Of a DNA stretch of 64,000 nucleotides, positions 38,215 through 49,046 are shown in pieces; the stretch's first letter is position 1, and the number at the start of each line of letters is the position of its first letter. This DNA is from Nitrospira sp. Lineage in GTDB: Bacteria > Nitrospirota > Nitrospiria > Nitrospirales > Nitrospiraceae. The translations under genes were made by a program, and so were the position numbers. The stretch is from contig SWDI01000003.1 in the NCBI GenBank assembly GCA_005116955.1, forward strand, positions 369,335 to 433,334, given 5' to 3'. The notes beneath the pieces are model-generated. The model did no database searches. It was not told where the DNA came from and saw nothing but the letters and a program-made list of their open reading frames with translations.

Positions 38215-38514
38215 TCAGCTGTAGGTTTGCTCGTCTCGCTTGGCGAGTTTCAGAAGAATGACCTTCTGGCGTGAGTCGTCCACATCGTACAGCAGGCGAT
38301 AGGGACCGATGCGAAGGCGATATTGTGCGGTGAATTGTGACACGATGAGCTGGCCAGCGAGTTGTTTCGTCCGTTTCCCCTCAGGTCTCGGATTGGCAGT
38401 GAGCGACCGAATGGCGGCGACGATAGATGCCCGGTAATCGGTGGGGATCTTCGCCAATGTCTTCTGAAAGGAGCGCTCAATCCGTTCGCTAGGAAACACG
38501 ACTTCGTAGGGCAA
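38215..38514 (-). CDS. RelE/ParE-family toxin
   Basis: MPYEVVFPSERIERSFQKTLAKIPTDYRASIVAAIRSLTANPRPEGKRTKQLAGQ...YRLRIGPYRLLYDVDDSRQKVILLKLAKRDE. Confidence 0.88.
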   Translation of the reverse strand: MPYEVVFPSERIERSFQKTLAKIPTDYRASIVAAIRSLTANPRPEGKRTKQLAGQLIVSQFTAQYRLRIGPYRLLYDVDDSRQKVILLKLAKRDEQTYS

Positions 38515-38796
38515 CTACAGCCCCATCTTCTTGAAGAGACGTTCGGCAGGAACGGCTTTCCCCTGTGCATACTCTGTGCGGGCTCGCTTGATCTCCCCCA
38601 GTAACTTCTTATCTTTCAACTCATCGAGGGCCTCGACCAAATCCAGCATGTCCTCGTAGGGCACGAGGAAGGACACCGGTTTGCCGTGGGAAAGGACCAG
38701 GGAAGGAGACTTCGAATGAATCAGTTTCGAGAGCTGTGCTTGCGCCTCTCGCACATTAACCGGCCTGGCGTTCCGAAGCAGGGATGACGAACTCAC
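38515..38796 (-). CDS. Phd/YefM-family antitoxin
   Basis: VNVREAQAQLSKLIHSKSPSLVLSHGKPVSFLVPYEDM; immediately upstream of the toxin gene. Confidence 0.85.
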   Translation of the reverse strand: MSSSSLLRNARPVNVREAQAQLSKLIHSKSPSLVLSHGKPVSFLVPYEDMLDLVEALDELKDKKLLGEIKRARTEYAQGKAVPAERLFKKMGL

Positions 38797-39366: not shown

Positions 39367-40107
39367 GTGCCACTTAAAACCATCAATGGCATTTTCCTCC
39401 CAGCTAATGGCTTCTTAGACGAAACAGAGAAAGGAGACGTTGTAGGAGTCGGCGGCTGGATTGGCAATTATGCTAGCTGGAATAATTTTGAACGTCGTTG
39501 GTTCGAACTACTGCCATCTGAAGCCAAAGGCGACTTTCACTACACTGACTATTGGCATGATCCCAAGTACTGGAGCGCTAAATGGTCACACTCTAAACGA
39601 GTAGAATTCATGCAGCAATTGGCTGAACTTATAGTTGAACATACCTCGCTTGGCCTGGGAATTCTGGTCTCCAAGGCCGAATACGAGGAGACAATACCTG
39701 AAGAGGACAAGCACGAGGTTAAGGAAGCAGTTTATTTTTGTCTTGCGCATTGCCTTAGGTTGCTCATAGAGCACTTTGACACAATGCCCGGCCAACCTCC
39801 GAAACCTCTTAGCTTCATGCACGATCGGAAAACCGGCAAGCACGAGTGGATCGGTGGCTGGTACACATTCGTGAGGAACACATTTCAACACAAGAATATC
39901 TTGGGAGATCTTTCATTTGGCACCCGAGCTGAGGAACCTGGTTTACAGGCGGCAGATCTCTTAATGGGAGAACTTCGTCGCTATCGCGAAGGACACGAGT
40001 CCAAGATCATAGATATTTTCCGTCAGAAAAATAACGTGTTAGTAGGTCGCCCCACAAAAGACGAGCTCCGGGAATTGGTCCGAAAGGCGTATGAAATGAT
40101 GCAATAA
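39367..40107 (+). CDS. DUF3800 family protein
   Basis: GFLDETEKGDVVGVGGWIGNYASWNNFERRW...LSFMHDRKTGKHEW...LQAADLLMGELRR; the D-E and late LQAADLL fit DUF3800. Confidence 0.78.
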   Translation: MPLKTINGIFLPANGFLDETEKGDVVGVGGWIGNYASWNNFERRWFELLPSEAKGDFHYTDYWHDPKYWSAKWSHSKRVEFMQQLAELIVEHTSLGLGILVSKAEYEETIPEEDKHEVKEAVYFCLAHCLRLLIEHFDTMPGQPPKPLSFMHDRKTGKHEWIGGWYTFVRNTFQHKNILGDLSFGTRAEEPGLQAADLLMGELRRYREGHESKIIDIFRQKNNVLVGRPTKDELRELVRKAYEMMQ

Positions 40108-40402
40108 ATGAAGAAGGTGCCCATCACACAGGCTCCCCGTCACCAACCTCTCCAACTGACTGACCACATAGAAGGAAATAACAAAGGGTCGAGGGTCTTT
40201 TCTGATTACTCGTCATGATGAATCACCACCAAAATGCCTTCTGACACTCGACAACCTGATTCTTGCGCCTCAGCTCGTCCACGTAACATTCACGTTTCCG
40301 CGCACAGCGGGCAACACGCAGGAAGCAGTTCATTTGACGGCACCCCAACTGGGGCTGTATTCTAACGATCAGAATTCTGGTCACTCTAGCAAGAGGTCTC
40401 TC

Positions 40403-40699
40403 ATGGCAAAAACCTTGTCGTTATCCGAAGTGAAAACCCGCCTCCCTGAACTCGTGGCGGGAGTCCAGGAGCGTGAGGAGGAAGTCATCGTCACAAAGAA
40501 TGGCCGGCCGGCGGCGATTTTGATCAATATTGATGAATATACCCGCCTTAAAGAGACCTTGGATGTCCTGAGCGATCCGGGACTCATGAGCCAGATTGCC
40601 GAGAGTCGGGCCTTTTACAAAACAAAGCACACAGGGCTCTCGTTTGAGGATGTATTCGGCGAGCCGCTTACGCCGGTCAAGAAGCGACGAACTGCGTGA
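40403..40699 (+). CDS. Phd/YefM-family antitoxin
   Basis: MAKTLSLSEVKTRLPELVAGVQEREEEVIVTKNGRPAAILINIDEYTRLKETLDVL. Confidence 0.9.
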   Translation: MAKTLSLSEVKTRLPELVAGVQEREEEVIVTKNGRPAAILINIDEYTRLKETLDVLSDPGLMSQIAESRAFYKTKHTGLSFEDVFGEPLTPVKKRRTA

Positions 40700-40992
40700 T
40701 CCCCTTCCGACCGGATATCCCTCCGCATGTCGCGGACGTGATCCGCTCACTCCATCCCGATCTCAAGCAACTGATCAAGTCAGCCATTCGGGCCATTGCC
40801 GCCAACCCCGAATGCGGCGAGCCGCTCAAGCGGGAACTCGACGGGTTACGAAAATACCGCGTTCGCCGCTTCCGCATCGTCTACGCAGTCGATCACAAGA
40901 GACGAGTCATTCGCCTCATGGCTGTGGGACACCGCCAATCTGTGTATGAGGAGCTGACCAAGCGGCTTCGACAAAAGCCCCGAGAACAGTAA
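40696..40992 (+). CDS. RelE/ParE-family toxin
   Basis: IRSLHPDLKQLIKSAIRAIAANPECGEPLKRELDGLRKYRVRRFRIVYAVDHKRRVIRLMAVGHRQSVYEEL; overlaps antitoxin stop. Confidence 0.9.
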   Translation: MIPFRPDIPPHVADVIRSLHPDLKQLIKSAIRAIAANPECGEPLKRELDGLRKYRVRRFRIVYAVDHKRRVIRLMAVGHRQSVYEELTKRLRQKPREQ

Positions 40993-41135
40993 TTCCTCAG
41001 TTCACTCCCTCACCACCTCACGAGGGCATTTAAAGGTCCTTCCCTCTCTGGTTCTCCTATGACGCATCTGATCGCCACTGGACACCCGGCAAGAATAGGG
41101 ATTAGGCTGAAGCACAAACCCCAAAGAGGAAGCCC

Positions 41136-41237
41136 ATGCCTGGAATGTTTGGCAACAATCCGCCGCTTATGTTGATCGCCATCGGGATTGTCATTGTCGC
41201 GGCTGTCGTGTTCGCCCTGATGACGGCAGGTTATTAG
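41136..41237 (+). CDS. Small single-TM peptide
   Basis: atgcctggaatgtttgg... encodes MPGMFGNNPPLMLIAIGIVIVAAVVFALMTAGY* after an agagga RBS-like stretch. Confidence 0.45.
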   Translation: MPGMFGNNPPLMLIAIGIVIVAAVVFALMTAGY

Positions 41238-41427
41238 GCGGATCAGTGGATCGATGAGCACTTAATCGGTTCATACCTGGAAGAAGTATGGTCACGCTGT
41301 TTCCCCGTCAACACGTGGAATCCACTGTGATGCAGTCTCAACTTTGGCTCACTCCGAGATCTGCTGCTGCATGCTTAAAGTCAATACACATGCCAGACCA
41401 TCCCGCTGGAAATTGCAAGAGAGTGTT

Positions 41428-42624
41428 TTAGGCGCGGGCAAGTTTGGTTGCCCTTCGCAATTGCCCTACAGGCAACGATCTCGCGGCCACATGACCTGCA
41501 CGAATGGCTTGATTGTGCGACTTGCCTTGCTGGCGTTTCTTTTCATAGTAGCGTTGCGATTCCGGGATCTGCTTGCGATGCCGATCCACGGCGATCATCA
41601 TGGCGGCCTTCGCGCGGACGTTGACCTGTTTCGGCGGCTTGGAGCTGTGGCGTGTGCCAGAACTGTTGTCCAAGGTGGCCATGCCGAGATACAACGCTAG
41701 ACTGCTTTCCTGCTGGAAGCGTGTCACCGTCCCGATCTCCCCCGCGAGCTCGGCGGTGCAGATCGGGCCAAATCCCGGGAGCGAGGCGACCGTCGTGGCG
41801 ATCGTGGACTCCTGCGCGACCTGATGCATCGTCGTCTCCAAGGCCGCGATCTGTGCATCGAGGTCCAGCACCCGCTGGGCATCCTCCTGGATCATGGCCC
41901 CGACCCACTCCACCTCCGGACTCCACTGGGCCTGTGGCTGCCAGTCCTGAATGATGCGCGCATACGCTCGCCCCACACAGGGGATGTTCAAGAGGGTCGT
42001 TTTGCGAAGGCGCGTCAGTTGCGGAAGCGTGTCCGCACTGACCAACAAGTGCAGGAACCACTGGTTGCCGACTTCCCGCGTGAGATCGAGCAATCCTGGA
42101 CAGACTGCCTGGAGATCGGCTTGGAGCGTATTCAAGACCCGGACTCGTTCGTTCACCAGCCGCCGGCGCCGTCGTGTCAGCCGCTTCAAGCGCGCATTCG
42201 CCGCCGGCACTACGCCAACTTCCTGTAACACGGCTTTGGCTACCGGAAGATGCTCCCGCAGTTGAAACAACTCAAGCCCCTTGCGCGCATCCAGCCGATC
42301 GGTCTTGGCGGCCCCCGGAAAGATCTCTTTGAACCGGGCCAACTTGAGATTATTGATATTGTAGAGCCGATATCCGCGTGCCTGAATCAGCTGATCCAAC
42401 GGTCGCGCATACCCATTATAGCCTTCCATCGCGACAGCGACTGGCCCTGGGTAGTGTTGGTGATAGGTCTCGATGCGGGCGAAGAAGTGGGCAAAGCCTT
42501 CTGGGTGATGCGTGATTGCAAATTCTTCCAGCACGTCACCACTCGACAGCCCGATGGCGACATGGTGTCGTCGGGCACCCACATCTACACTAACTCGCAG
42601 TTCGACGGTTGATGTTGTGGCCAC
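41428..42624 (-). mobile_element. IS110-family transposase (IS110 element; ends not defined)
   Basis: VSVDVGARRHHVAIG (DEDD N-terminus), AAKTDRLDARKGLEL, LPGFGPICTAELAGEIGTVTRF, SSLALYLGMATLDNSSG; GTG start with gaggagg RBS. Confidence 0.92.
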
Positions 42625-42651
42625 GTGACCCTCCTCTTGTAGATCGGTGAG

Positions 42652-42737
42652 GCATCATCCCTCGGTCTCGTCTACAGTCAGAGCCACGTCTTCTGGGCAG
42701 AAGATGGCACCATCCCGGTCGACCCCTCGGATGATGC
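42652..42737 (-). ncRNA. Candidate IS110 bridge RNA region upstream of the transposase
   Basis: gcatcatcc (42652-42660) pairs perfectly with ggatgatgc (42729-42737), enclosing hairpin gccacgtcttctgggcagaagatggc (42683-42708). Confidence 0.45.
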
Positions 42738-43049
42738 AGGTGACGGAGGCGGCATTTCAGGCAGAGTGTGCCTGACGACACAGGCCACGGACCCCACGAG
42801 CCACACCTCCGTCAGAAGCCCGTATACCGGAAACATACTGCTCTGTCACCTACAAATTCCCATGGTAGACCCCAATGTAGATACGGACGCGCGCAGTCGA
42901 GGATCGACCAGGCCGCACTCGTGGAGCGAGCGAGCTTGGAAGGGCCATTATGGTGTTCGTTTGATCGGTGCTGCGGCGATAAAGGAATCCCGACTCTTTT
43001 TCGCATTTCAAAAATTGGTGAGTTGATGCCACAGAAAAGGTAGTTTCGT

Positions 43050-43730
43050 TTACTTACGGCGATGCAGCGAAGAGTCTGCGCAATGCTTTTGAATTGCGGA
43101 AATCAACAATAGACACACGCTTCTTATCTGCTCGATGATGTGGAGAATGTCCGAACGTGAGAAGCGACGCCCGACGTTCTCTGCGGTTTCTCTTCCATGT
43201 GAGATTGCGTTCCTATGGTCAACAACTTCATCTATTCTGTGCAAATGACGATTGCGTTGTGCAGGAGTTCGTTTGATGCCAAGTACGTCAAATATCAGCT
43301 GCAAATGTGAATGGCGGAAATGACTCCCGTCATACGGGAATACGGTATTTCCTACGCTAGCAAAATTGTCAGAAAAGACCTGATTGAATAATTTTAGCCG
43401 TCGATCCCAGACATCTTTGGGGGTGCAGTCCCGCAGGGATGTAAGTTCAGAGTCTAAAAATAGAGCCATTAATGAGGGAGTTAAGTCTTTTTTGGAGTGA
43501 TTATGAGAGACAAGAACGTCTATGGCAGTTTGAACTACTGTGCAAACAGTATATTCGTAAACAGAATACATTTGCACAAAGGCCAACCCTTTAGCGATCT
43601 GTGCTGCGTCCCCTTTCAATCCGTGCGCAGCTTTAAAAAAGGATTCAATCCCAGTAAAGCGATCTATGACCTCAGCTCGCAGGGGATCGAACATATTCTT
43701 TCCCAGCAAAATGATCCCTGCAGAACTCAA
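43050..43730 (-). CDS. HEPN-domain protein (MAE_28990/MAE_18760-like)
   Basis: FVQMYSVYEYTVCTVVQTAIDVLVSH...LHRIDEVVDHRNAISHGRET with an R-x4-H motif; likely start MFDPLRAEV near 43694. Confidence 0.72.
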   Translation of the reverse strand: MSSAGIILLGKNMFDPLRAEVIDRFTGIESFFKAAHGLKGDAAQIAKGLAFVQMYSVYEYTVCTVVQTAIDVLVSHNHSKKDLTPSLMALFLDSELTSLRDCTPKDVWDRRLKLFNQVFSDNFASVGNTVFPYDGSHFRHSHLQLIFDVLGIKRTPAQRNRHLHRIDEVVDHRNAISHGRETAENVGRRFSRSDILHIIEQIRSVCLLLISAIQKHCADSSLHRRK

Positions 43731-44895
43731 TCCGTCCCTTAACAGCAGACCTGTCGTTTGTAGCTCCTGTTGTAAAGCTGCGCAGTGTATCCGACGCCAT
43801 CCATGAATCTAAATTCTTGATGACAAGGTGGTTCACTGTTCGAAGTGCGAGCGCCGCCCCAACTGTTATTCCTTCGTAGAGGTTCAGGGGGGTAGTTCCC
43901 TTTCGGCCTGGTCGGCTAAGGCCATCGGGGAAAGCTTTTGCGAGTTCTGCAAATGTGGCGTTAAATATTTTCTCTTTCTTTTTGTAGTCGAAGTTCTTGG
44001 AAGCCTCTGACATATAATCATTCAGGAACGAACTGACGCCGTGGTCAAATTCTTTGTATCGGTCAAGAAATGCGAAGAATCTCAGGACGCACTCCTCCGC
44101 AGTTCCATCTTTTTGCTGCAGCTGTGTAAGCTTAACAACTGTTTTGAAGTCGGCAGAATTAGCTAATGTCTCCAGCCTTTCAGCAAAGTCGCCTCGGTAG
44201 ACGCAGTCTCGAATCTCTTGTGGGGTTAGGGCAACACCGCCAGTGTTCAGGCGCTCAAATAAATCATATCGAACTACACTATCGCTCTTGTCATTAAGAG
44301 TGATTACCTTTAATGGCCTGGTCCGAAAGTGAAGCTGTATGTTAGCCGGAAGGTCTTCATATCGTAGCCCCTCAAATTCTGTGAGCTTCTGTAGATCGGT
44401 CAAAACTAATGCGTCCCCAACGCCTAACTTTTTCCGGGTCGCTGTAGCGCCAGCGAATTTGACAAGGGAGCTCAGTCGTTGAACTCCATCTACAACTTCC
44501 CAAGAATTGTCTTGGTTTGTTGCCATGAAAAGACTTGGGACTGGAATGCCTAGCAAGACAGACTCAATTAGCTGAGAGCATCGTTTAGGGTCCCATCTGA
44601 ATTGTCGTTGATAAGCTGGGGCAACCCAGATTTGCCCTTCATCAACCATTGCCAATAGCTGTTGTAGATGAATGTCGAAGGTGTCGAAATCTACTGTTCT
44701 GCGCTGCTCTTTTAATTGTTGATCGAGCTTCAACTGCTGTTGAGTGTTCTCTTTGAGGCTGGACATATTTACCCCACTCTTCGTGTATTTAGAGTCCCAG
44801 ATGGTAGCCGTTGTTCCCAACTTACTCAAGTTGTTACATTCTTTCCAGGCTCTAGAAAACAGAAAAAGAGGGTTCAAAACAGCAACATTCTGCAT
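43672..44895 (-). CDS. DUF262-domain protein
   Basis: VAPAYQRQFRWDPKRCSQLIESVLLGIPVPSLFMATNQDNSWEVVDGVQRLSSLVKF; likely start MSSLKENTQ near 44766. Confidence 0.88.
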   Translation of the reverse strand: MQNVAVLNPLFLFSRAWKECNNLSKLGTTATIWDSKYTKSGVNMSSLKENTQQQLKLDQQLKEQRRTVDFDTFDIHLQQLLAMVDEGQIWVAPAYQRQFRWDPKRCSQLIESVLLGIPVPSLFMATNQDNSWEVVDGVQRLSSLVKFAGATATRKKLGVGDALVLTDLQKLTEFEGLRYEDLPANIQLHFRTRPLKVITLNDKSDSVVRYDLFERLNTGGVALTPQEIRDCVYRGDFAERLETLANSADFKTVVKLTQLQQKDGTAEECVLRFFAFLDRYKEFDHGVSSFLNDYMSEASKNFDYKKKEKIFNATFAELAKAFPDGLSRPGRKGTTPLNLYEGITVGAALALRTVNHLVIKNLDSWMASDTLRSFTTGATNDRSAVKGRIEFCRDHFAGKEYVRSPAS

Positions 44896-44931
44896 TTCTG
44901 TTTGCCGTGTCAGCGCGTGTATCGGCGCTGG

Positions 44932-45732
44932 CTAGTCTTTACTGCGGCTGCCCAAGAACGTGACGACGTGACCTCGGAGCGCGGCAACGAATCGCTGAAA
45001 GTTGAGGTCTTCTGCCGGCTGTGTGATTTTTGTCTTTGGTGAGTTGGTGGCCAGCATGAAACAGGCTGCGGTATACAGCCGCTCCAGCACCAGACGGCGA
45101 CACAGAAGTTCGTAGCGCTTGCTGTAGGAGACGCCTTTGTACCGCCGGAGGGCTGCTGTATCCTGGAAATGTGCTTCGCCACGGAACTCAGGGTCTACTT
45201 GGAAGTATGGTTCCTTGTTGGCAACAGGGATTTTGACATTGTCACGATCCTCTAAGAGGAACAGATAGCCAAGAAATGGAGGAGGCGCTTGACCAAAGCG
45301 GCCTTCTCGGAAAGCCGTCCAAATATCTTTGGCGCTGCCCACCGCTTCTTCCGAACGATTGTTTACATTGTTGCCGATCGATTTGCCGGCTTGGGACTTA
45401 AACTCCATCGCTAAGACCAATGCGCCGTTGGAAACGACGATGAGATCCCACTTTTTTGTGGCTCTGAAGTACCCCGGGAGCTCAAGCGCGGTCCTTGTGC
45501 GGATATCGACCTGATTCAATCCGGCTTCGCAGAGAATGTCCGAAACCAAGACTTCCAGGGCACCCATCTGAGTGCCTCCTGTGACTTCGCCTCTGGTGCC
45601 GGCATCGATTTTCCCTGACTGAACCTGCTTCTCTTTATTTTTCCTGCGGGCGTTCCAATAGCCTTGGACGGCGGCTTGCAATCTCTTGTCAATGTTCAAG
45701 CGCGGCCTCCAACGTGCGAGCGGTGACTCCAT
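44932..45732 (-). CDS. Type II restriction endonuclease, PaeR7I/XhoI-like
   Basis: GGTQMGALEVLVSDILCEAGL...WDLIVVSNGALVLAMEFKSQAGKSIGNNVNNRSEEAVGSAKDIWTAFREG; directly downstream of an N6-adenine MTase. Confidence 0.82.
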   Translation of the reverse strand: MESPLARWRPRLNIDKRLQAAVQGYWNARRKNKEKQVQSGKIDAGTRGEVTGGTQMGALEVLVSDILCEAGLNQVDIRTRTALELPGYFRATKKWDLIVVSNGALVLAMEFKSQAGKSIGNNVNNRSEEAVGSAKDIWTAFREGRFGQAPPPFLGYLFLLEDRDNVKIPVANKEPYFQVDPEFRGEAHFQDTAALRRYKGVSYSKRYELLCRRLVLERLYTAACFMLATNSPKTKITQPAEDLNFQRFVAALRGHVVTFLGSRSKD

Positions 45733-47398
45733 AGAGGTCCAATGCCGCTTGGGTCGCGCGAGGCCTATCCCGCAGACGGAAGGCGTCTCTCAATTCATGT
45801 GACTGGATCTTGGACAAGGACTTTGGCGCAGGGACTCGAATACGCCGTAGGTATTGCGCTTGGAAGCGCAAGTAGCCGCCTCGCATGCGGACTCCATAGG
45901 ATTCGACAAAAAACTGTCCCACCTTCGACAACAGGAGGCCGCCGAGTACTTCCAGGTCCCACTCCTCCGACTGAATGAAATACAGATTGTGGTGAGGATA
46001 TGTTTCGCCACGATCTAAGACCGGTTCGAGGGTGCTTTTGATATCCGGAATATACAGTTTGTGGGTGTGAGTGAGCGTGTGGTTAACGCGGTCGATCGTC
46101 TTATACCATTTGTCGACGCTTTTCTCCGCAGTGTGGCGTTTCTTCAGGGCTTCGGCATGCCGCTCGTAGTAGGCCTGCAACTTAGGATAGGTCTTCAGAT
46201 TGACCAGCCCATCGTGGTTCCATGGATTCACGAGATAGTGTCCGGACCACCGTACCGTTCCGTCCGTCAGATCTTTCGCAAGTGCAAGCTTCAGCAGGCG
46301 GGGAGGTTCCACCAGGTCCGCATCTGTTGTGATGTAGACTCGATCGTTCCCAGTAGCCACGCCGATCCCGACCTTGGCATTCATTTCAAGGGGAGAAAAC
46401 TGATCTTCCAGTTGTCGAAGGAGTGCCAGTTGTTCCGGCGAATGGCAGGGCCAGGGGTCTGATCCTTTGAACCATGTATGTACGACGGCTCGATGGATGC
46501 CCTGGGGCAGGATGGTTTGGCTGGTTGTCTGGAGCGTTGTTGCCAATTCTCCTGGTTGAACATTTTCAGCATCCTGATCGGCGTTTGCCACAATGGTGGA
46601 TTGCTGTTTTGCGTGCCGAATCACCGTGATGGCAGGATAGGCGTCCACTTCATCATCAAAGGCATTGGCGTGGTGCATACTGAGGAGCATCTCGACGCTG
46701 TACGCCGAACTAATCAGTTGGCGCAGTTCAGCCCCATATTGGTTACGCATCCATCGATCTGCGCAGATGAAGGTGCACACCCCGCCAGTTTTCAACTGCC
46801 GAAGGGCGGCTTCGAAGAATGCCACGTACAGGTCGGCTCGTCCGCGCATTGCGGGATACGCACTTCGGTAGACTGAGGCGGTCTCTTCTGGAATATCCTC
46901 AAGGCGCACATACGGAGGATTGCCGACAATGAAATCGGCTCGTCTCGTGTCGGCATCAAGGAGGTAATCTCCGTTTACTACCCACGCTTCAGCCAGTTTC
47001 TTTGCGAGTAGGCTCTTCGCTCCGTGATCCACTAGAAGATCTTGAGCGACAGTGCGGGCATGAGCCGCACTCTTCTCATCCAGTTCGTAGGCGATGAGAG
47101 AGTCTTGGCAATCCGATAACGGTCGACCCAGCTTCCGGCACGATTTCACTAGGCGCTCAATCATGGGACCGAGAAACGCGCCATCGCCGGCTGCTGGTTC
47201 GATGGCCAGGCTGTCCACTATGTTGGTATTCGAGCAATAGCCGCTTAAGTCCAGAAGTAGTTCAACGACCCAACGCTTTGTGTAGACGACCCCTTTCGGC
47301 TCAGCTGCTGATACAGAAGGTGGACGTCGGAGAGGCGCGATCAACGGAAGCTGTATACCTCGTGTTAAGACTGATGGACTAAAATGGTTGTCTGACAC
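45689..47398 (-). CDS. Type II N6-adenine DNA methyltransferase, PaeR7I/XhoI-like
   Basis: AIEPAAGDGAFLGPMIERL (SAM motif), DFIVGNPPYVRLEDIP (NPPY). Confidence 0.9.
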   Translation of the reverse strand: MSDNHFSPSVLTRGIQLPLIAPLRRPPSVSAAEPKGVVYTKRWVVELLLDLSGYCSNTNIVDSLAIEPAAGDGAFLGPMIERLVKSCRKLGRPLSDCQDSLIAYELDEKSAAHARTVAQDLLVDHGAKSLLAKKLAEAWVVNGDYLLDADTRRADFIVGNPPYVRLEDIPEETASVYRSAYPAMRGRADLYVAFFEAALRQLKTGGVCTFICADRWMRNQYGAELRQLISSAYSVEMLLSMHHANAFDDEVDAYPAITVIRHAKQQSTIVANADQDAENVQPGELATTLQTTSQTILPQGIHRAVVHTWFKGSDPWPCHSPEQLALLRQLEDQFSPLEMNAKVGIGVATGNDRVYITTDADLVEPPRLLKLALAKDLTDGTVRWSGHYLVNPWNHDGLVNLKTYPKLQAYYERHAEALKKRHTAEKSVDKWYKTIDRVNHTLTHTHKLYIPDIKSTLEPVLDRGETYPHHNLYFIQSEEWDLEVLGGLLLSKVGQFFVESYGVRMRGGYLRFQAQYLRRIRVPAPKSLSKIQSHELRDAFRLRDRPRATQAALDLYGVTARTLEAALEH

Positions 47399-47495
47399 GA
47401 GGGCCTCGATCTCTCCGAGGAGGTCTGGTGGAAAAAGAGTGGCTGATAGTAGCTTGTCTGTGCTTTTCCTTCAAGGTTCGGTCAGGAGGTGTATT

Positions 47496-47582
47496 ATGTA
47501 TTACGATCAGTACTACGAAGACCAGACAGGTGGCGGGCTAGTTACAGGCTGGGACATGTCGCCTTTTTTCAGCGGTTGCTAA
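47496..47582 (+). CDS. Possible 28-aa peptide
   Basis: aggaggtgtattATG: strong RBS spacing; MYYDQYYEDQTGGGLVTGWDMSPFFSGC*. Confidence 0.4.
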   Translation: MYYDQYYEDQTGGGLVTGWDMSPFFSGC

Positions 47583-47681
47583 GATCCGAACATCAGAATA
47601 ACTTACGTAGGTAATTTGGTCTGCTTTGAGTATTGACTTCTTATGTTCTGAAACGAGTGCCGTCCGGTTTCATCAGCGTTT

Positions 47682-47765
47682 CTAGATTTCTCGCCGGTGT
47701 CCAACTCGCAAGACGACGATCTCTTGGCCATTCAGATCGAAGCCGACACGGTAATTTCCAATCCG
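47682..47765 (-). pseudogene. RelE/ParE toxin C-terminal remnant
   Basis: Minus strand reads RIGNYRVGFDLNGQEIVVLRVGHRREI*, the RelE C-terminal signature; no intact N-terminus seen. Confidence 0.65.
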
Positions 47766-47825
47766 AGACCGAGTGGATCACAATTCTGCTTGCTTAAGCG
47801 GTGCGGCGTGGGCGAGAGGACGCGA

Positions 47826-48899
47826 TCACTTCTTATAGTTGACCCGTGATACGGGATCAACCTGATGAGGCGCGCGTTGAATCGATTGACGGACGCGGTT
47901 CATGGGCGGCACGGGCGGTTTTTCGATGGCGACCTCGGTCGGCCCGTTTCCAGAAGGAGCGGTTCCGATTTCGGCAAAGACACCGCGATGGTCCGAGGGC
48001 CAGAGAGCATCGCCGTTCGGGAGCCGGCCGGGCTGGTCAAATGCCAGACGGCTTGAACGCACGACCGAGCTTCCATTGGTACTTCCATCAAACAGGAAAA
48101 TAAAATCGACACGGCGATCGGCCGTGGGCCATTCGACTTGGATATTTTGCCAGACGGTTCCTCCGGGTACTCCCGGATTCGCGATCCGGAAGGCGTCGAT
48201 GAATCCCGGCTCTTTCTGCCATTCGGTGAGGACTGGAGATTGCTCTCCGGTATTCAAGTCGCCCATCAAAATGGCTCGCCCCGTTCCTCGATGTTCGCGG
48301 AACAGTTCGCCAACTCGTTGGAGTTGGCATTCGTCGCCTTTCGACGTGTGGGCGGAAAAGATTTGGGTCGGCCCATCGGGAGCCTTAATCTCGGCTCGCA
48401 GAAGAATGCGGGGGTCCATGCGACGTGGGCACCGAGGCAGGTCGTAGACTGCTGAGGTGACGATGGGATAGCGGCTCAGGATGGCCGGTCCTTCTTTGAA
48501 GCCGATGGCTGAGGTGATCAGTTGATCCACAAAACCAATGCCGAAGATATGTTCGGTTGCAGGAGCGAACACCATCTGGTACCCGAGTGCCTCAGCGATT
48601 CGTTGAGGCACGTTGCCATGCTTTCGGCTGTCTGACGCTTCTTGAAGTGCGATGACGTCAGGTTGCAAACGCTTCAGTTCTTGGATGGATATGTCGAGTC
48701 GTTCCTCGAGATGGGTGCCGCTCTCGAAGAATCCTGACCAGGCTCCATCGTGCAGCAGGTTGTAGGTCAAGACTCGCAGTGGAGGCGAATCTCCTCGGCC
48801 TTCTTCAGCGTGCGTTACGGGACTGCAGAGCAGTAGGATGGCGGCCAGCCACGGGAGCGTATACGAGAAGCGGTTGACCATGGGTGATACACGTAACAT
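47826..48899 (-). CDS. Endonuclease/exonuclease/phosphatase family protein
   Basis: LRVLTYNLLHDG, DVIALQEASDS, ILMGDLNTGEQSP, WPSDHRGVFAEI. Confidence 0.88.
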   Translation of the reverse strand: MLRVSPMVNRFSYTLPWLAAILLLCSPVTHAEEGRGDSPPLRVLTYNLLHDGAWSGFFESGTHLEERLDISIQELKRLQPDVIALQEASDSRKHGNVPQRIAEALGYQMVFAPATEHIFGIGFVDQLITSAIGFKEGPAILSRYPIVTSAVYDLPRCPRRMDPRILLRAEIKAPDGPTQIFSAHTSKGDECQLQRVGELFREHRGTGRAILMGDLNTGEQSPVLTEWQKEPGFIDAFRIANPGVPGGTVWQNIQVEWPTADRRVDFIFLFDGSTNGSSVVRSSRLAFDQPGRLPNGDALWPSDHRGVFAEIGTAPSGNGPTEVAIEKPPVPPMNRVRQSIQRAPHQVDPVSRVNYKK

Positions 48900-49046
48900 A
48901 CGCCTCTCTCCTAAATCTTTCCACAGTGAATACGTATGATGTGATTTGGCGATTGACGCTGATCCTGGTTCCGTCCTTGCGCCGTCTTTTCAGCGGGTGC
49001 TAAGATCCGATCAACAGAATCATTTCGTACCTGTTTCAGAAACATC

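What the first reader, a model, noticed from the sequence alone, without database searches (positions are those of the whole stretch)
43050..44895. DUF262 + HEPN overlapping gene pair downstream of a restriction-modification system: candidate defence module
Seen: on the minus strand a DUF262 gene (FRWDPKR; DGVQRLSSL, where the usual DUF262 motif is DGQQR) overlaps the next ORF, a protein with an R-x4-H motif (RNAISHG) typical of HEPN RNases. No DUF1524 HNH domain is visible in the DUF262 protein, so it is not a standard GmrSD/BrxU type IV enzyme. Established: DUF262 proteins are NTP-dependent sensors or nucleases in GmrSD-like systems, and HEPN proteins are often RNases in abortive defence. 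Inference: the DUF262 protein senses an invader or modified DNA and licenses a HEPN RNase.
Basis: partly seen in the sequence, partly recalled or inferred. Interest (0 to 1): 0.82.

Follow-up and report, generated by a model that had tools for sequence, protein, structure and literature searches.

The report
DUF262–HEPN two-gene phage-defence module
Two overlapping genes encode a nucleotide-binding DUF262 protein and a HEPN RNase-like protein that almost always travel together across bacteria and prophages; the pair is a divergent cousin of the proven anti-phage system PD-T4-2, and half of its relatives carry a DNA methyltransferase next door.

Summary
On the minus strand a GmrSD_N/DUF262 gene (likely 43672-44766) overlaps a HEPN gene (43050-43694) by 23 nt, and the DUF262 protein has no DUF1524 domain. 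DGVQR is not unusual: the third letter varies among relatives (S, L, V, T, A, Q). The pair is a conserved unit. In a search keyed on DUF262 alone, 158 of 159 evaluable relatives have the HEPN gene next to it, and all 6 HEPN hits in 292 genomes adjoin DUF262. HEPN E47, R161, N162, H166 and G167 are invariant in a 62-sequence alignment at 21% mean identity. The window pair is a sister branch. Its HEPN (MAE_28990 type) matches no PD-T4-2_B model, although the two HEPN types are remotely homologous. New here: a cytosine-C5 methyltransferase lies within 400 bp in 82 of 165 pairs, confined to one clade, suggesting a restriction-modification layout with a HEPN effector; the window clade lacks it. The neighbouring XhoI-type R-M occurs without the pair in related genomes. 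The mechanism is inferred, not shown.

The parts
43672..44766 (-). DUF262 (GmrSD_N, ParB/Srx-like) gene, 364 aa from the conserved start; ORF extends to ATG 44895 (407 aa)
   Evidence: Pfam GmrSD_N 4.9e-30; PADLOC NsnA 2e-66 and PD-T4-2_A 8.7e-46; AlphaFold pLDDT 91.3, Foldseek best BrxU E 2.7e-4 then CDP-bound ParB; start inferred from relatives
44476..44490 (-). DGVQR motif, putative nucleotide-binding motif (DGxQR)
   Evidence: D, G and R in 154 of 154 and Q in 153 of 154 relatives; third position variable
44581..44601 (-). FRWDPKR motif of DUF262
   Evidence: sequence; P93, Q96, R97, W101 conserved in about 99% of relatives
43050..43694 (-). HEPN_MAE_28990-family gene, 214 aa (TTG start 43730 would give 226 aa); predicted effector RNase
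   Evidence: Pfam 3.1e-12, above cut-off; AlphaFold all-helical, pLDDT 92.0
43197..43214 (-). RNAISH (R-x4-H), putative HEPN catalytic motif
   Evidence: R161, N162, H166, G167 and E47 invariant in A4, 62 sequences
43672..43694 (-). 23-nt overlap of the two reading frames (probable translational coupling)
   Evidence: 58% of relatives also overlap, mostly by 1-14 nt
43003..44868 (.). inferred extent of the DUF262-HEPN cassette
   Evidence: R-M homology in four related genomes stops at 44869-44876; in one of them sequence 73% identical to 42887-43002 lies 61 bp beyond the R-M end; GC about 46% against 54-55% around

Best explanation
The pair is a horizontally moving two-gene anti-phage module of the PD-T4-2-like kind, in the MAE_28990-HEPN branch that lacks a methyltransferase. 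Shown by sequence: a conserved operon of DUF262 (ParB/Srx-fold nucleotide-binding protein with DGxQR) and a HEPN protein with an intact R-x4-H site. Inferred: DUF262 binds NTP, recognises a feature of invading DNA (most likely its modification state), and the nucleotide cycle of that complex switches on the HEPN RNase, which cuts RNA and stops phage production, perhaps by arresting the cell. In the methyltransferase-linked sister clade the same pair would act on DNA lacking the host mark (restriction-modification-like); in the window's clade it would act on a phage-specific mark or structure (type IV-like), as PD-T4-2 acts on T-even phages.
For: Family assignments. Reciprocal near-obligate linkage: 158 of 159 evaluable DUF262 loci have HEPN adjacent and 6 of 6 HEPN hits in 292 genomes adjoin DUF262. 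Invariant E47/R161/N162/H166/G167 and DGxQR. High-confidence models; DUF262 resembles BrxU (type IV restriction) and nucleotide-bound ParB. Partner co-divergence r = 0.89, as expected for co-inherited genes. DUF262 tree: the MAE-HEPN branch groups with a PD-T4-2_B-linked DUF262 (support 96), whose partner scores PD-T4-2_B 2.4e-50; the two HEPN types are profile-homologous (95%, E 4e-8). PD-T4-2 protects against T4 in its native strain and in K-12 (PMC9519451) and contains DUF262 and HEPN (PMC10952713). Mobile context: relatives in prophages beside CI repressors and integrases and on plasmids. C5 methyltransferase (81 of 81 with PCQ) within 400 bp of 82 of 165 pairs, in one clade.
Against: No activity is shown for either protein. 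The HEPN does not reach any PD-T4-2_B model. Foldseek finds no solved HEPN for the model (best E 0.54), so the HEPN call rests on Pfam profiles and the motif. No solved structure of such a pair matches by sequence. The window's clade has no methyltransferase, so the modification logic is not direct evidence for this copy. Some HEPN proteins act otherwise than as RNases (own knowledge).
Confidence: 0.6

Rival explanations
1. Toxin-antitoxin pair: DUF262 is the antitoxin that holds a constitutively active HEPN toxin in check; phage attack or loss of the plasmid or prophage frees the toxin.
For: Order upstream regulator / downstream HEPN with overlapping frames resembles TA operons; carriage on plasmids and prophages; other HEPN toxins work in TA pairs (PMC3710099).
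Against: Two natural loci keep an intact HEPN frame with the R-x4-H motif beside a broken DUF262: L051 (stop inside DUF262) and L223 (front of DUF262 missing, transposase in its place). Few cases, possibly sequencing errors or silent genes. In BrxU and SspE the DUF262 domain drives the nuclease rather than acting as an antitoxin (PMC10952713).
Confidence: 0.17
2. The pair is mainly a DNA-targeting restriction system: DUF262 recognises DNA and the HEPN protein, or DUF262 itself, cuts DNA, so that it works as ordinary type II or type IV restriction.
For: DUF262 is known from GmrSD/BrxU/SspE; half of the pairs sit next to a C5 methyltransferase; E. coli prophages keep methyltransferase, DUF262 and HEPN together even at 74-76% identity.
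Against: No HNH or other DNase domain found in either protein; characterised active HEPN enzymes cut RNA (PMC3710099).
Confidence: 0.14
3. The pair belongs functionally to the XhoI-type R-M next to it, as a suicide back-up when restriction fails.
For: Same strand, about 165 bp downstream of the REase gene; XhoI-type REase homologues also lie near L072, L077 and L104.
Against: Four related genomes carry the R-M at 86-89% identity without the pair; most relatives of the pair have no such R-M; GC of the pair is lower.
Confidence: 0.05
4. Degenerate remnant of a defence cassette without function in this genome.
For: Apparently acquired, next to an IS110 element; some relatives are broken.
Against: Both frames are open, all conserved residues are kept, the overlap is preserved.
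Confidence: 0.04

Closest known systems
PD-T4-2 (Vassallo et al. 2022, PMC9519451)
   Same: Two genes, DUF262 and HEPN; DUF262 matches PD-T4-2_A at 8.7e-46; the HEPN types are remotely homologous; branches group in the DUF262 tree.
   Different: HEPN is MAE_28990-type and matches none of three PD-T4-2_B models; DUF262 is 30% identical to the PD-T4-2_B-linked copy in the same bacterial family.
MAE_28990 HEPN neighbourhood (Anantharaman et al. 2013, PMC3710099)
   Same: Same HEPN family, described 'in operon with a ParB nuclease and DNA methylase genes'; DUF262 is the ParB-like partner.
   Different: That paper gives one table line and no mechanism for this pair; the window copy has no associated C5 methyltransferase.
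NsnA/NsnB of PADLOC (to my knowledge the Menshen system)
   Same: DUF262 protein scores highest with the NsnA model, 2e-66.
   Different: Its partner is an AAA/DUF3696 OLD-like protein (NsnB), not HEPN; a separate clade in the DUF262 tree.
GmrSD / BrxU / SspE
   Same: Shared DUF262 domain; BrxU is the best fold match.
   Different: No DUF1524 HNH domain; the effector is a separate HEPN protein.

Membership tests
PD-T4-2 | DUF262 component matching the PD-T4-2_A model | tested here: met
   8.7e-46 over residues 79-366, though NsnA scores higher
PD-T4-2 | HEPN component matching a PD-T4-2_B model | tested here: not met
   no hit at E<=1 nor for any of 12 HEPN partners at E<=0.01; remote profile similarity only
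PD-T4-2 | protection against T-even phages | not testable with these tools
   needs plaque assays
GmrSD/BrxU type IV restriction | DUF262 domain with DGxQR | tested here: met
GmrSD/BrxU type IV restriction | DUF1524 HNH nuclease domain | tested here: not met
   no Pfam hit beyond GmrSD_N at E<=1
HEPN superfamily, MAE_28990 family | profile match above the curated cut-off | tested here: met
   47.6 bits against 26.8
HEPN superfamily, MAE_28990 family | R-x4-6-H motif conserved | tested here: met
   R161 and H166 invariant in A1 and A4
HEPN superfamily, MAE_28990 family | HEPN fold matched to a solved structure | tested here: inconclusive
   confident all-helical model but no significant Foldseek match
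NsnAB (Menshen) | AAA/DUF3696 NsnB partner | tested here: not met
   partner is HEPN
Restriction-modification (methyltransferase-linked branch) | cognate C5 methyltransferase next to the pair | tested here: not met
   none at the window; present within 400 bp in 82 of 165 relatives, in none of 18 evaluable members of the window's clade

The most novel reading that the evidence does not exclude
DUF262-HEPN pairs are restriction systems whose restriction arm is an RNase: DUF262 reads the methylation state of DNA and, through its nucleotide cycle, activates a HEPN RNase. One clade (with a C5 methyltransferase) attacks when the host mark is missing; the other clade, including the window, has no methyltransferase and attacks on foreign marks. 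DNA self/non-self recognition would thus be converted into RNA cleavage.
Probability: 0.35. Interest if true: 0.78.

Novelty: new variant of a known kind. Interest (0 to 1): 0.52.

Why it matters
That gives a direct, cheap test of how DUF262 proteins sense DNA and pass the signal to different effectors (HNH, OLD-like ATPase, HEPN), an open question for the whole DUF262 group.

Tried and rejected
Idea that DGVQR marks an unusual DUF262: rejected, the third letter is variable. Idea that pair and XhoI-type R-M form one system: rejected as a conserved feature. Single-protein scan of genome contigs found nothing; the alignment-based scan did. tblastn of the window HEPN against phages found nothing, in keeping with HEPN diverging faster than DUF262. 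Foldseek of the HEPN model against PDB was uninformative. tblastn of a PD-T4-2_B-like HEPN (L013) in plasmids gave no match. No Rfam family in 41000-48000. Promoter and terminator scan at chance level. Apparent homology of the long N-terminal extension (1-43) in L117 did not hold up on inspection.

Full report
OBSERVATION. The two overlapping minus-strand genes are real. The upstream protein is a DUF262/GmrSD_N protein (4.9e-30) without any DUF1524 domain; the downstream one is a HEPN protein of the MAE_28990 family (3.1e-12) that also matches RiboL-PSP HEPN (7.2e-11), all above Pfam's curated cut-offs. The likely DUF262 start is ATG 44766, since the closest relatives begin near there and the 43-residue extension is not conserved. 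HEPN starts at ATG 43694 inside the end of DUF262, a 23-nt overlap.

IT IS A UNIT. A profile made from DUF262 proteins was used to fetch 80 loci from genomes and 80 from viral contigs; the partner gene was not used in that search, although the profile was built from copies that have HEPN partners. In 155 of the 160 loci the next gene is the same HEPN family; over all 167 such pairs the start lies from 59 nt inside to a few nt beyond the DUF262 stop and 58% overlap. Three more of the 160 have the HEPN with a frame break in one of the two genes, one is cut by the contig end and one has another gene. In the reverse direction, a HEPN profile search of 292 genomes of the phylum gave six hits and all six adjoin a DUF262 gene or part of one. 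Pairwise divergence of the two proteins is correlated (r = 0.89, expected for linked genes), and HEPN is the less conserved in 99.5% of comparisons.

CONSERVED SITES. In 62 HEPN sequences at 21% mean column identity only E47, R161, N162, H166 and G167 are invariant; this is what an active HEPN site would require. AlphaFold models are confident (pLDDT 92.0 and 91.3). The DUF262 model matches BrxU best and then nucleotide-bound ParB proteins. The HEPN model is all-helical but has no significant PDB match, so the fold is supported by profile and motif rather than by structure.

RELATION TO KNOWN SYSTEMS. The DUF262 protein matches two PADLOC models: NsnA (2e-66) and PD-T4-2_A (8.7e-46). PD-T4-2 combines DUF262 with a HEPN (PMC10952713) and was shown to protect E. 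coli from T4 in its original host and in K-12 (PMC9519451). The window's HEPN does not reach any PD-T4-2_B model, but a set of short HEPNs that includes a true PD-T4-2_B match (L013, 2.4e-50) is profile-homologous to it (95% probability). NsnA-type DUF262 is partnered by the AAA/DUF3696 protein NsnB. In a tree of 71 DUF262 proteins the partner type changes only a few times: the 47 MAE-HEPN copies lie on one side of a branch (support 93), grouped with the PD-T4-2_B-linked copies (96), apart from the NsnB-linked ones (100). The same DUF262 scaffold thus serves different effectors. The MAE_28990 HEPN family was noted in 2013 'in operon with a ParB nuclease and DNA methylase genes' (PMC3710099). 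I found no paper among those held that tests this branch.

A METHYLTRANSFERASE-LINKED CLADE. Scanning the flanks, a Dcm-like cytosine-C5 methyltransferase lies within 400 bp of 82 of 165 pairs and further away in only one, in three arrangements: downstream convergent 46, upstream same strand 23, downstream same strand 13. All 81 full-length ones keep PCQ and 80 keep ENV. On the DUF262 tree 76 of 93 evaluable members of one clade have it, and none of 18 evaluable members of the window's clade. E. coli prophage-type loci keep methyltransferase, DUF262 and HEPN together even at 74-76% DNA identity. In the window's clade the neighbours that recur are phage CI repressors, S24 peptidases, integrases and other phage genes. 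I read this as one clade that behaves like restriction-modification with a HEPN effector, and another, including the window, that has to discriminate by other means; that reading is inference.

CONTEXT AND MOBILITY. The pair lies between an IS110 element and an XhoI-type R-M operon. Four genomes of the genus carry that R-M at 86-89% identity, with homology ending at 44869-44876, but not the pair; in one, sequence 73% identical to the other flank of the pair (42887-43002) follows 61 bp after the R-M end. GC of the pair is about 46% against 54-55% around. It is therefore most likely a separately acquired cassette, and its link to this R-M is not conserved.

MECHANISM. Most likely: DUF262 with bound nucleotide recognises invading DNA and switches on the HEPN RNase, ending phage production. 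Shown: operon, conserved sites, kinship to a tested system, mobility. Not shown: any activity, the DNA feature sensed, the RNA target. The TA alternative is weakened, but not excluded, by two loci with intact HEPN and broken DUF262 (L051, L223).

VERDICT. A real and widespread module, a new variant of the known DUF262+HEPN kind, more interesting for the methyltransferase-linked versus methyltransferase-free split than for the DGVQR detail. Interest 0.52.

Noticed in passing
L030, L045-L054, L136-L189 and others; 82 of 165 loci: A Dcm-like cytosine-C5 methyltransferase directly adjoins half of all DUF262-HEPN(MAE) pairs, in one DUF262 clade; layout like a restriction-modification system with a HEPN effector.
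   Followed up: yes
window 44932-47398: XhoI-type REase plus Eco57I-like methyltransferase; CTCGAG, the XhoI site, is depleted in the window (15 found, 27.2 expected), in keeping with a resident enzyme of that specificity.
   Followed up: partly
window 44876-47599 and L198, L199: In two related genomes the R-M cassette lies on the other side of the Exo_endo_phos gene (47826-48930), so the R-M itself has moved locally.
   Followed up: partly
L117 7148-8029: In a phage-like contig the HEPN gene of the closest DUF262 relative appears interrupted by a transposase gene while DUF262 stays intact; L223 shows the reverse, DUF262 broken by a transposase.
   Followed up: partly
window 42994-43009 and 44855-44870: Imperfect 16-nt inverted repeat (81%) at the inferred ends of the DUF262-HEPN cassette; may be chance.
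   Followed up: no
window 42887-43002: Short sequence with degenerate copies in many genomes of the genus; nature unknown.
   Followed up: partly
window 38215-38796 and 40334-40992: Two Phd/YefM-ParE type toxin-antitoxin pairs and a possible DUF3800 protein at 39367-40107 (below cut-off) in the same variable region between recA and the AddAB-like genes.
   Followed up: partly
A4/A5 pairs: HEPN is less conserved than DUF262 in 99.5% of pair comparisons, i.e. the presumed effector changes faster than the presumed sensor.
   Followed up: partly
L008, L016, L023 and nine others: In the same phylum a separate DUF262 clade is paired with AAA/DUF3696 NsnB-like ATPases.
   Followed up: yes
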